A stretch of 64,000 bases of DNA from positions 1-64,000 of the forward strand of contig NZ_LCTF01000008.1 of assembly GCF_001663375.1 (NCBI RefSeq), in the 5' to 3' direction. Shown here one piece after another: positions 28,331 to 59,330 of the stretch. The notes below the pieces were generated by a model. That model did no database searches. It saw only the letters and a list, made by a program, of their open reading frames with translations, and was not told the DNA's origin. The first letter of the stretch is position 1. Each line of letters opens with the position of its first letter. This DNA comes from Caldivirga sp. MU80. Lineage in GTDB: Archaea > Thermoproteota > Thermoprotei > Thermoproteales > Thermocladiaceae. The position numbers and the translations under genes were made by a program.

Positions 28331-28470
28331 GCATGTTGCTAATGGCCAGGATCTTAATAAGCTTTTCACAATGCAATACGAAGTCAAATATTGAAGGGTA
28401 GGAAAGAGGTATGGAATCATAATAACTATGCAGACAGATATGCTTTTAAAATAAGGCAGTGGTTAATTTT

Positions 28471-29078
28471 TGCCCCGTTCCCCGCATCTCTGTGTCCCTA
28501 ATCACTGCTCATCTCTTGTCGGGTCTGTGCCCCCATTCTTGGGGCATCATTGGTCAGCGCCCGTGGGGCTGGGTCTGACCCCGCTCCTTCCTCGGTGCCT
28601 TACCTCTGGGAGTGGGTCAGTATAGCCCCAAAGTACCCGCTTATAAATCCTTGCCTCTTTTTAAGTTAAAGAATGCTAAGAGGGCTGGGAGGTTGGTTAG
28701 GAGGCTTAGGAGTCGTGCGTATAGGCTCATTAGGGCTGAGGCGGTTTTCCTAGCCAGGAAGCTCACTAAGAAAGCCCTTAGGTATAGGGCAATGGTGGTT
28801 ATTGATGATGTTGATTGGGAGAGCTTAAAGGAACTCCTCATGAGGAGGTATGGGAAGAAAATCAGTAAGTTACTTCTCTCTGGACTAAAAAGATTCGTGA
28901 AATTACTGGTTACCCAATTACAGTGGTATGGTGTACCTTACGAATTCAAGAGACTCTACAGCAGGAAATGCCCAAACTGCAAGCATAAGCTGACGCAGCA
29001 AAAGGGAAGGGTAATGATTTGTACTAATTGTGGCTTCAAGGCTCCTAGGGACATGGTGCCCATGTACTGGGTTCTGAC
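28471..29078 (+). mobile_element. Internally deleted tnpB element (group 1), right part replaced
   Basis: The left end TGCCCCGTTCCCC (28471) and the next 140 bp align with the copy at 58752. It contains hairpin TGCCCC/GGGGCA (28528-28533 with 28541-28546), a larger stem CTGACCC/GGGTCAG (28575-28581 with 28614-28620) and a TATA-like CTTATAAATC (28640-28649). A tnpB fragment lacking its N-terminal half follows. At 29079 it is interrupted by the left end of another element, and its own right end is not found. Confidence 0.6.
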
Positions 29079-29094
29079 CCCCTCCCCGCCTTAA
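28662..29094 (+). pseudogene. tnpB: TnpB fragment, C-terminal half (group 1)
   Basis: The frame encodes KNAKRAGRLVRRLRSRAYRL, then KALRYRAMVVIDDVDWESLK, RRFVKLL-like RFVKLLVTQLQWYGVPYEFK and a zinc ribbon CPNCKHKL...MICTNCGFKAPRD. This is the second half of a crenarchaeal TnpB, with RuvC-II/III regions but no RuvC-I. The frame stays open upstream into the structured left end (to 28612), which is not TnpB-like. The final residues TPSPP come from the element inserted at 29079, so the true C-terminus is missing. No good start codon lies at the beginning of the TnpB-like part. Confidence 0.65.
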
Positions 29095-29504
29095 AGGGCG
29101 GGTTTCCCTGGGGTCTTGGGGGTTACCCACGCTTGTTGCGGGCTACTAGATACCTTGACAGGGCTGGGTTTTTATAAATCTCTAACCTCACGAGGGCGGG
29201 CGTGTTGAACGTGGCCTCTATAAGTGTCCCCGCATGGGGAAGGTCATTAATGCGGACTTGAACGGTGCAAGGAACATCCTACATATCCCCGAGTCCCTGG
29301 GATCCGTGAGTTGGGGTGTCTCACGGTGGGGGATGGGGGTAATGGGTTGAAGACCCAGCCCGTGGTCTACCGCTGGACGAGCAGAGCGGAGTGGGTGCGA
29401 ACCACACCCACCAGCAATGAAGCAATAAGGATGAAGACAGTAAACCACAAACCAATAAACAACCCAAAGACAACCCCCACCCTTAAGGACGGGGAGGAGG
29501 TCAG
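29079..29504 (+). mobile_element. Internally deleted tnpB element (group 2) with both ends
   Basis: The left end TGACCCCCTCCCCGCC (29079) and the right end GGGGAGGAGGTCAG (finishing at 29504) are imperfect inverted repeats of about 28 bp, each with a GC hairpin. Inside are a TATA-like TTTTTATAAATC (29168-29179), then a tnpB 3' fragment, CPRMGKVINADLNGARNIL, followed in another frame by KTQPVVYRWTSRAEWVRTTP and TPTLKDGEEVS, a familiar tail of crenarchaeal TnpB proteins. Most of tnpB is deleted and the rest is frameshifted. The left flank is a group 1 tnpB fragment, the right flank a PaREP1 gene. Confidence 0.65.
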
Positions 29505-57455: not shown

Positions 57456-58781
57456 GTGGATAAGGTTAGGCTTAGTGATGGTGAGTATGTTAGGATAGAG
57501 GGGCCGGCCATGGTGGAGGTGCTGAGGGGTTCGCTATACCTCCTGGGTGCCCAGTATGAGACTGGGGCTAAGGTGACTATACTTAGGGCTAGGAGGGTTG
57601 TGGCTAAGGCTATTAGTGATACTGAGCTATCACTAGTCCTCGGTCCAGGTGGCTTTGCCGATAAGCCCAAGGCCGGTGAGGAGATGATTGATGAGTGGGA
57701 TAGTAAACTTAACATTAGCCTAAAGGGCTCTGTGGTAGTGGTCATGGGTGCAATGGACTCAGGCAAAACGACGATAACCACCATACTGGTTAATAAGGCT
57801 GCATCAATGGGTTTAAAGGTGGGTGTGGTTGATGCTGACCCTGGTCAAAATGACCTAGGTCCACCCACGACAATAACCTGCTCAGTACTGAAGAGTGGTA
57901 GAATAACCCACCTAAGCTTCATGATTCCACTTAGGCAGGTTTTCATAGGCTCAACTAACCTTGAGGGTAACTGGCATAGGGCTGTTTATGCCGTCACTAA
58001 GCTTGTTGATTACCTTAGGGGTAGGGAGGGGGCTGATTTAATAGTGGTCAACACAGACGGCTGGGTTGAGGGCGAGGGGGCGATTGAGTATAAGAGGGCC
58101 CTTGTAACCGCCGTTAAGCCAAGTTACGTAATAGTCATGAGGAAGGGTGATGAGGTTGATGGTTTGGTGAAGGGGTTGAGCCAGTGGAATACCCTAGTCC
58201 TCAATGCCCCACCGTCTATGAGGGTTAGGGATAGGAATGATAGGAAGATTCATAGGGATATGGGCTACGGCAGGTACCTATCACCTTCAAGGGACTTGAC
58301 ACTAAGCCTAAGCCAGGTTAACGTGGTTAATATGCCCATAACCGGTAGGAGACTTGATGAAAGACTTGCAAGGTTAATCTCAACTTACCTAAAGGTTAAG
58401 CCCATATACGTGGACGCCTTGAAGAACATGGTAATGGTGGTTTCAAGTAGCGTTAAGGAGCCTACACTAAGAAGCATACCAGGTGGCGTAGCCCTAATCC
58501 TTCAACCAAACTGGGAGAACGGCCTACTGGTTGGGCTGGAGGACGTGGATGGTTTCCTGGTTTCACTAGCGGTCTTAAGGAGGATCTACTACAATGCAGG
58601 TAAAATAGTGGTTACAGTACCCAGGAGACTGAGTAATGCCGAACTAGCCAGTGTAAGGAGCATTAGGGTTGGTTCAATAAGGGTTAATGAACAGTTTGAG
58701 GAGGTGGATAAATTCAGCATAATATATAGAGTCGAGAGAATACTAAGTGATGCCCCGTTCCCCTCATCCCAGCGATCCTAA
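57456..58781 (+). CDS. Clp1/Grc3-like polynucleotide 5'-kinase
   Basis: About 441 residues from GTG 57456, which lies 25 bp after TCTTTTTAAGG; the upstream frame to 57390 is not needed. Walker A is VVVMGAMDSGKTTITTILVN, followed by VVDADPGQNDLGPPTTI and LIVVNTDGWVEGEGAIEYKR, as in archaeal RNA 5'-kinases of the Clp1 family, which act in tRNA or RNA processing. The last 10 or so residues (DAPFPSSQRS) are encoded by the left end of an inserted tnpB element beginning near 58752, so the native C-terminus has been replaced. Confidence 0.8.
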   Translation: MDKVRLSDGEYVRIEGPAMVEVLRGSLYLLGAQYETGAKVTILRARRVVAKAISDTELSLVLGPGGFADKPKAGEEMIDEWDSKLNISLKGSVVVVMGAMDSGKTTITTILVNKAASMGLKVGVVDADPGQNDLGPPTTITCSVLKSGRITHLSFMIPLRQVFIGSTNLEGNWHRAVYAVTKLVDYLRGREGADLIVVNTDGWVEGEGAIEYKRALVTAVKPSYVIVMRKGDEVDGLVKGLSQWNTLVLNAPPSMRVRDRNDRKIHRDMGYGRYLSPSRDLTLSLSQVNVVNMPITGRRLDERLARLISTYLKVKPIYVDALKNMVMVVSSSVKEPTLRSIPGGVALILQPNWENGLLVGLEDVDGFLVSLAVLRRIYYNAGKIVVTVPRRLSNAELASVRSIRVGSIRVNEQFEEVDKFSIIYRVERILSDAPFPSSQRS

Positions 58782-59330
58782 TTATTGACTCATCCTCTGT
58801 CGGGCTAATGCCCCCATCCTCGGGGCATCACTGGTCAGCTCGCCCACGGGGCAGGGCTCCTGGGTACTCACAATTACCTCGTACCCAGGACTGTGTAGTC
58901 TTATATTTAAACCTTAGGCTTGTTAGGAAGGCCCTTAGGCATAGGGCACTAGTCATCATTGACGACATTATTGAGGAGTCGAGGAGGGAGTTAATCGAGG
59001 AGAAGCTACCGAGCGGTTTAAGGAAGATTTACCTGGCTGAGACGAGGAGGTTCGTTAAGCTACTGATTGCCCAGCTAGAGTGGTATGGTGTGCCGTATGA
59101 GTTCAAGAGGTTGCCAAGCACAATATGCCCAATTTGCGGGAGTGAGTTAACCCAATTACAAGGCAGAATCATGGTTTGCGAAAACTGCGGATTCAAAGCA
59201 CCAAGAGACAAAATACCAATACACTGGGCATTGAAGGCGATGCCCAAAGCCAAGGTGGGTTCCTCCTAGATGGGAGCCCATGAAGTGTGGGCGAGGTGGA
59301 AGCCCCTAGGCGCAATAAACAAATAAACAC
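58752..59330 (+). mobile_element. Internally deleted tnpB element (group 1)
   Basis: The left end TGCCCCGTTCCCC and the next 140 bp match the copy at 28471. It has hairpin ATGCCCC/GGGGCAT (58808-58814 with 58822-58828), a perfect 10-bp stem TCCTGGGTAC/GTACCCAGGA (58858-58867 with 58881-58890) and a TATA-like TTATATTTAAAC (58901-58912). A tnpB fragment follows, and a right-end hairpin, GCCCCTAGGCG with CACCTAGGGAC, lies at about 59307-59340. The N-terminal half of tnpB is deleted. Confidence 0.6.
58911..59269 (+). pseudogene. tnpB: TnpB fragment, C-terminal half (group 1)
   Basis: The frame encodes LRLVRKALRHRALVIIDDII, then ETRRFVKLLIAQLEWYGVPY, EFKRLPSTICPICGSELTQL and MVCENCGFKAPRDKIPIHWA, i.e. 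the RuvC-II/III and zinc-ribbon half of a crenarchaeal TnpB. RuvC-I and the N-terminal wedge are missing. The first TnpB-like codons follow a TATA-like sequence directly and no in-frame start is suitably placed, so expression as a protein is doubtful. The upstream open frame to 58808 runs through the structured left end and is not protein-like. Confidence 0.65.

What the first reader, a model, noticed from the sequence alone, without database searches (positions are those of the whole stretch)
58858..58890. Covarying stem-loop with an invariant TTACCTC loop at the left end of group 1 tnpB elements
Two element copies (28471 and 58752) align through the left 140 bp. Where the A copy has the perfect 10-bp stem TCCTGGGTAC/GTACCCAGGA (58858-58867, 58881-58890), the B copy has an unrelated-sequence stem, CTGACCC/GGGTCAG plus CTCC/GGAG (28575-28581, 28584-28587, 28609-28612, 28614-28620). 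Both loops keep TTACCTC on their 3' side (58874-58880; 28600-28606). A second hairpin upstream (ATGCCCC/GGGGCAT) is also shared. Retained pairing with changed sequence indicates selection on structure, at RNA or single-strand DNA level, directly upstream of the tnpB promoter. The guide RNA known for TnpB comes from the opposite (3') end, so a 5' structured element would be different. It could be an RNA, a transposase recognition site or an attenuator.
Basis: partly seen in the sequence, partly recalled or inferred. Interest (0 to 1): 0.68.

Follow-up and report, generated by a model that had tools for sequence, protein, structure and literature searches.

The report
Backward guide-RNA gene beside tnpB
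At the front end of a family of archaeal mobile elements lies a small RNA gene read away from its tnpB-like nuclease gene; it has its own promoter and the folded, pseudoknotted shape of the guide RNAs that aim TnpB and Cas12 at DNA, although the known guides of TnpB sit at the other end of the element.

Summary
The stem exists at the stated coordinates and covaries, but the TTACCTC loop is not invariant beyond a few copies. With 24 copies from Caldivirga, Vulcanisaeta and Pyrobaculum relatives, the 'left end' reads as an RNA gene on the MINUS strand, about 130-150 nt long. It starts at the reported stem, divergently from tnpB, and ends exactly at the element boundary (GGGGCA|flank). In 14 of 16 copies a leftward BRE/TATA box starts 28-31 nt before the predicted RNA start; window copy A is one of the two exceptions (-19). 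The fold holds the variable 5' stem, a covarying hairpin CCC[AGCCCCGU]GGG, and a pseudoknot joining that hairpin's loop to the last nucleotides before the flank: the architecture and spacing of the TnpB omegaRNA. The adjacent gene encodes a TnpB/Cas12f-fold protein (RuvC D, D, D). This clade shows no conserved 3' RNA and no synonymous-site constraint there; its Pyrobaculum sisters have a conserved 3' stretch. Best explanation: the guide-RNA gene sits at the opposite end, inverted, with its own promoter, so the guide is the left flank. RNA-only copies exist. Expression, TnpB binding and cleavage are untested. The window's two copies have truncated tnpB and are probably relics.

The parts
58751..58892 (-). 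Copy A: omegaRNA-like scaffold, 142 nt, read right to left from the predicted start (58892) to the element end (58751)
   Evidence: profile match 58752-58856 minus at E 1.2e-24; start by the AGTCC motif and stem edge
58858..58890 (-). Copy A: variable 5' stem-loop (arms 58881-58890 and 58858-58867)
   Evidence: sequence; pairing kept with changed sequence in other copies
58843..58856 (-). Copy A: hairpin H1, arms 58854-58856 and 58843-58845, loop 58846-58853
   Evidence: arms covary across copies, permutation p 1e-4 over copies and 0.011 over distinct arm pairs
58752..58758 (-). Copy A: 3' arm of the pseudoknot, pairs with the H1 loop 58846-58852
   Evidence: seven Watson-Crick pairs in A; position 7 changes on both sides in G023b and G039
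58809..58827 (-). Copy A: hairpin H2 (TGCCCC/GGGGCA)
   Evidence: sequence; H2 core 95.6% of cells paired
58904..58911 (-). Copy A: leftward TATA-like box, at -19 instead of -28 to -31, so probably impaired by a small deletion
58731..58750 (-). Copy A: left flank, predicted guide (inferred; length assumed about 16-20 nt)
   Evidence: follows GGGGCA in the RNA direction; flanks share no motif
58916..59269 (+). Copy A: truncated tnpB-like gene (C-terminal third only)
   Evidence: 72% identity to residues 261-366 of the G013 protein
28471..28619 (-). Copy B: omegaRNA-like scaffold, about 149 nt; two pseudoknot pairs are broken
   Evidence: profile match 28472-28573 minus at E 1.2e-25; left boundary exact against the G004 locus without the element
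28640..28647 (-). Copy B: leftward TATA box at -28
28451..28470 (-). Copy B: left flank, predicted guide (inferred)
28672..29094 (+). Copy B: truncated tnpB-like gene
   Evidence: 83% DNA identity to the C71 copy from 28672; 49% protein identity to residues 220-366 of the G013 protein

Best explanation
The 'left end' is a gene for a structured, omegaRNA-like guide RNA on the strand opposite to tnpB. Transcription starts from a leftward archaeal promoter that forms a divergent pair with the promoter of the small ORF and tnpB. [quoted passage not shown] That flank would be the guide. The adjacent TnpB/Cas12f-fold protein (RuvC D175, D276, D358) would bind this RNA and cut or bind DNA matching the left flank, i.e. 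the site left by excision, keeping the element in place as proposed for classical TnpB. Compared with IS200/IS605 elements, the guide end lies on the other side of tnpB and is inverted relative to it, with its own promoter. Shown by sequence analysis: conserved structure, covariation, promoter position, exact left boundary, protein fold, no conserved 3' RNA in this clade. Inferred: transcription, TnpB binding, guide use, cleavage.
For: Leftward BRE/TATA at -28 to -31 in 14 of 16 copies, with a matrix trained only on the rightward promoters, including RNA-only copies. H1 arm covariation in four forms. Pseudoknot of the H1 loop with the 3' scaffold end, fully Watson-Crick in 13 of 20 copies tabulated, U-A to C-G in two lineages, with the loop arm at -96 to -102, matching the ISDra2 omegaRNA, where -5 to -3 pair with -103 to -105 (PMC10097598). 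5'-stem departures are G-U on the minus strand 8 to 2. H4 pair 77-89 is U-A or U-G in all 24 copies. Exact boundary at GGGGCA| and unconserved flanks. TnpB/Cas12f fold with invariant acidic triad. All 12 tnpB genes of the clade with a readable 5' side carry the RNA. No conserved 3' RNA in the clade, no synonymous constraint there, unlike its sisters' conserved 3' stretches.
Against: No expression or binding data. Whole-structure covariation is modest against shuffles, and fold energies of the stem region do not separate the strands (13 to 9). Outer H2 pairs in one Vulcanisaeta-type group fit the plus strand better. The promoter test is weak for G004b, G023b and G010, and the training promoters come from the same elements. 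TAM and right end are unresolved. The usual RuvC glutamate is aspartate here. The window's own copies are truncated, and A has a displaced TATA box.
Confidence: 0.7

Rival explanations
1. It is only a DNA element: the transposon end, folded as single-stranded hairpins and recognised by a Y1 (HUH) transposase acting in trans, as at IS200/IS605 ends.
For: It is an exact element end with hairpins near it; Y1 transposases exist in G003, G010 and G013.
Against: No Y1 transposase found in G000, G028 or G039, which carry the structure. A DNA site does not need a positioned divergent promoter, long conserved unpaired stretches or a pseudoknot at omegaRNA spacing. It could still be a second role, as the classical right end is both.
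Confidence: 0.14
2. It is a divergently transcribed regulatory or antisense RNA of the element (art200-like) that does not guide TnpB.
For: Divergent promoter; RNA-only copies without tnpB; IS200 has a divergent antisense RNA, art200 (PMC12594629).
Against: The RNA does not overlap the small-ORF or tnpB mRNA, so it is not antisense to it. A regulator would not need a pseudoknot with its last nucleotides or an end exactly at the element boundary.
Confidence: 0.1
3. It is a plus-strand RNA with a 5' guide, arranged like IscB omegaRNA, entering the element from the left.
For: Left-end position and a pseudoknot next to the boundary fit either strand; some outer H2 pairs are G-U on the plus strand; IscB omegaRNAs are at the 5' end (stated in PMC12558985).
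Against: No promoter of the element could drive it, since its 5' end is the flank. The protein is of TnpB type. The leftward promoter and 5'-stem wobbles favour the minus strand.
Confidence: 0.04

Closest known systems
IS200/IS605 TnpB with omegaRNA (reRNA), ISDra2 type
   Same: TnpB fold; scaffold of 130-150 nt (ISDra2 116 nt); pseudoknot between the last scaffold nucleotides and a segment about 100 nt upstream; RNA ends at the element boundary with the flank as guide.
   Different: The RNA is upstream of tnpB, on the opposite strand, with its own promoter and no overlap with tnpB; guide from the other flank; E to D in the RuvC triad; no conserved motif (TAM) at this end.
IS607 TnpB with RAGATH-18-derived RNA
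   Same: Separate conserved structured RNA next to tnpB with pseudoknots and a 3' guide (PMC11061315).
   Different: There the RNA lies downstream of tnpB in the same direction.
Cas12f (type V-F) with tracrRNA and crRNA
   Same: Protein fold neighbours; guide pseudoknot described as common to Cas12 guides; guide RNA genes separate from the nuclease gene.
   Different: No CRISPR array belongs to this element; single RNA; mobile element context.
IscB/IsrB with 5' omegaRNA
   Same: RNA upstream of the nuclease gene.
   Different: The IscB RNA is at the 5' end with a 5' guide (my knowledge for the guide side; 5' position); here the RNA is divergent with a 3' guide and the protein is of TnpB type.
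art200, antisense RNA of IS200 (Salmonella)
   Same: Divergent small RNA at the front of an IS200-family gene.
   Different: art200 pairs with the tnpA transcript; this RNA does not overlap the element's mRNA.
sotRNAs of IS1341-type tnpB in haloarchaea (Rfam RF02656, RF02657)
   Same: Archaeal ncRNAs of tnpB elements.
   Different: Sense and overlapping tnpB; no Rfam family matches this RNA at the thresholds used.

Membership tests
TnpB RNA-guided nuclease (protein) | TnpB/Cas12-like fold with RuvC and zinc ribbon | tested here: met
   AF2 model pLDDT 86.9; best Foldseek hits 8iaz ISFba1 TnpB, Cas12f, 8h1j ISDra2 TnpB; profile hit to ISDra2 TnpB only E 0.007
TnpB RNA-guided nuclease (protein) | RuvC acidic triad D, E, D | tested here: inconclusive
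   D175, D276, D358 invariant in 24 relatives, but the second is D where TnpB has E
TnpB RNA-guided nuclease (protein) | guide-dependent DNA cleavage | not testable with these tools
   needs biochemistry
TnpB omegaRNA | structured scaffold with pseudoknot joining its 3' end to a segment about 100 nt upstream | tested here: met
TnpB omegaRNA | RNA ends at the element boundary and runs into unconserved flank | tested here: met
TnpB omegaRNA | overlaps the 3' end of tnpB and the right end, same strand | tested here: not met
   lies upstream on the opposite strand with its own promoter; no 3' RNA signal
TnpB omegaRNA | bound by TnpB in the cell | not testable with these tools
   no expression data available
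IS200/IS605 transposon | Y1 TnpA available in the carrier genome | tested here: inconclusive
   absent in G000, G028, G039; present in G003, G010, G013
IS200/IS605 transposon | defined right and left ends with a conserved cleavage/TAM motif at one flank | tested here: inconclusive
   RNA end exact without motif; other end not resolved
Rfam RNA families | match to a described family | tested here: not met

The most novel reading that the evidence does not exclude
A TnpB lineage whose guide RNA has become a separate gene with its own promoter, now also spread as RNA-only copies that supply trans-acting guides to TnpB proteins encoded elsewhere in the genome: a step towards stand-alone guide genes as in CRISPR, or towards RNA-guided regulation.
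Probability: 0.25. Interest if true: 0.88.

Novelty: new variant of a known kind. Interest (0 to 1): 0.72.

Why it matters
The TnpB guides described in the papers read come from the 3' side of tnpB, and for IS200/IS605 overlap its message. A clade with the guide gene inverted, upstream and independently promoted would show that protein and guide can be uncoupled within such elements, a step needed for the origin of separate guide genes as in CRISPR. It offers compact hyperthermophile TnpB proteins with a cleanly separable guide gene and a ready explanation for the RNA-only copies. It also warns that looking only downstream of tnpB will miss guides.

Tried and rejected
Plus-strand 5' UTR or attenuator: rejected because the tnpB-side promoter lies downstream of the stem and the small-ORF mRNA starts at or near its start codon. 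Classical 3' omegaRNA in this clade: no conserved sequence past the tnpB stop except within sub-lineages and no synonymous constraint; the 3' tails of A, C50, C71 and of G003, G013a look like pieces of other tnpB elements. RNAalifold on the MAFFT alignment missed the pseudoknot and the variable stem. Comparing fold energies of the stem region between strands gave no clear answer (13 to 9), so pair-by-pair counts were used. TAM by empty sites failed: A sits in a diverged intergenic stretch, B lost about 170 nt with a second insertion, G013c replaced about 2 kb, C18 shows a local inversion. The predicted guide of RNA-only copy C61 matched only itself in its genome. Rfam: nothing. IMG/VR: no copies. 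Exact-motif hits in Methanoregula, Inquilinus, Anaerolineae and Desulfuromonas contigs are about the number expected by chance and were not followed. Small ORF: no Pfam family. No description of a divergent or upstream TnpB guide was found in the open library; subscription journals and preprints are largely missing there.

Full report
Observation. A 103-position sequence profile of the core finds exactly these two places in the window at E about 1e-24 and 1e-25; both are among its training sequences. The loop is not invariant across the family: TTACCTC, TTGCCTC, TTCCCTC, or replaced altogether.

Collection. Copies were found in the own genome and in relatives. With the profile, 17 of 81 genomes of the class have a match; the strong ones lie in two families, f1 and f2, and the single hit elsewhere (G077) is weak (E 0.004). 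Complete copies read: left-end RNA (130-150 nt), divergent promoter pair, a small ORF of about 55 codons without a Pfam family, and a tnpB-like gene of 355-407 codons. The two window copies have lost most of tnpB and are probably relics.

Which strand. The stretch between the stem and the small ORF holds two TATA boxes facing apart. A BRE/TATA matrix built only from the rightward promoters was run on the minus strand. Its best hit starts 28-31 nt before the predicted RNA start at the outer edge of the reported stem in 14 of 16 copies, at -36 in one and at -19 in window copy A. RNA-only copies (C61, G004b, G023b) keep the box. The shuffle test is strong in most copies but weak in G004b, G023b and G010. 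In the hand-assigned 5' stem, departures from Watson-Crick pairing are G-U on the minus strand in 8 cells and A-C in 2, the latter in B and G006 (one C71 arm was entered there with a wrong end base, so one of its pairs should be read as unpaired; the G-U and A-C counts do not change). Pair 77-89 of H4 is U-A in 13 and U-G in 11 copies and never broken. Against this, outer pairs of H2 in one Vulcanisaeta-type group fit the plus strand better, and fold energies of the stem region do not separate the strands.

Structure. On the minus strand the RNA starts with the variable stem, followed by H1, CCC[AGCCCCGU]GGG. Its arms change together: CCC/GGG, GCC/GGC in C50 and G004b, GGG/CCC in G010, CCG/CGG in G039 (permutation p 1e-4 over all copies, 0.011 over distinct arm pairs). 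The H1 loop GCCCCGU pairs with ACGGGGC, which ends one nucleotide before the element boundary. Of 20 copies tabulated before that script stopped, 13 pair at all seven positions by Watson-Crick and one more with a U-G; position 7 changes from U-A to C-G in G023b and G039. The loop arm lies 96-102 nt from the RNA end in all 16 copies measured. In the ISDra2 omegaRNA nucleotides -5 to -3 pair with -103 to -105, and this pseudoknot is described as conserved among Cas12 guides (PMC10097598). Taken over H1, H2 and H4 the covariation is modest against shuffles, so the case rests on H1, the 5' stem, the pseudoknot and the promoter together.

Boundary. In copy B, homology to the G004 locus that lacks the element ends exactly before the element's first base. 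In G013c, homology to several Vulcanisaeta genomes starts at the base after GGGGCA. Flanks after GGGGCA share no motif, as expected of a guide side and unlike the conserved TAM side of ISDra2 (PMC8612924).

Protein. An alignment of 24 relatives has invariant D175, D276 and D358 and four invariant zinc-ribbon cysteines. The AlphaFold2 model (pLDDT 86.9) matches ISFba1 TnpB, Cas12f and ISDra2 TnpB. D276 stands where TnpB has E, so nuclease activity is likely but not certain.

Where the guide is. Across this clade nothing is conserved beyond the tnpB stop except within sub-lineages, and 4-fold sites near the 3' end vary as elsewhere (0.57 against 0.62 overall). Sister proteins in Pyrobaculum-type genomes, most of which lack this RNA, have conserved stretches reaching about 150-330 nt past the stop, as expected of a classical 3' omegaRNA, though no RNA was tested there. 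So the conserved RNA of this clade is the divergent one. G010 also carries an inverted relative of the RNA end on the classical side.

Mechanism and limits. The most economical reading is an omegaRNA moved to the other end and inverted, with its own promoter, guiding TnpB to the left-flank sequence. Transcription, loading and cleavage are inferred. The right end and the TAM were not resolved. Transposase recognition of the same end remains possible in addition, but no Y1 transposase was found in three carrier genomes. Searches of the open literature found no such arrangement; this does not cover most subscription journals.

Noticed in passing
L019 about 1246-1393, L028 about 1722-1886 and equivalents: A conserved small ORF of about 55 codons lies between the divergent promoter and tnpB and overlaps the tnpB start; no Pfam or NCBIfam match.
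   Followed up: partly
L020 near 1030-1170, L034 near 550-690, L116 near 2150-2290, L128 (G006): RNA-only copies with a leftward TATA box and no adjacent tnpB; the C61 copy (L020) lies just upstream of an N6/N4 DNA methylase gene.
   Followed up: partly
L044:2697-2783 (+), G010:C1:1588696-1588782: An inverted, partial relative of the RNA lies downstream of the same tnpB, on the coding strand, i.e. in the classical omegaRNA position.
   Followed up: partly
L019 (C18) against G004:C205:15592-15687: A 96-nt stretch next to the RNA end, on the predicted guide side, is inverted between two species.
   Followed up: no
L039 and L040 (two G013 copies): Mosaic copies: identical over about 480 nt (RNA core, promoter, small ORF, start of tnpB) but diverged on both sides, as after gene conversion.
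   Followed up: no
window 29075-29503: What looks like a separate classical element with LE TGACCCCCTCCCC and RE GGACGGGGAGGAGGTCA sits at the 3' end of copy B; its roughly 110-nt left end has many relatives in the genomes of the genus.
   Followed up: partly
G028 (1,826,402 bp, looks like Pyrobaculum islandicum): 27 matches to the tnpB-like family in one genome, mostly a sister group with conserved 3' stretches, without a Y1 transposase in that genome.
   Followed up: partly
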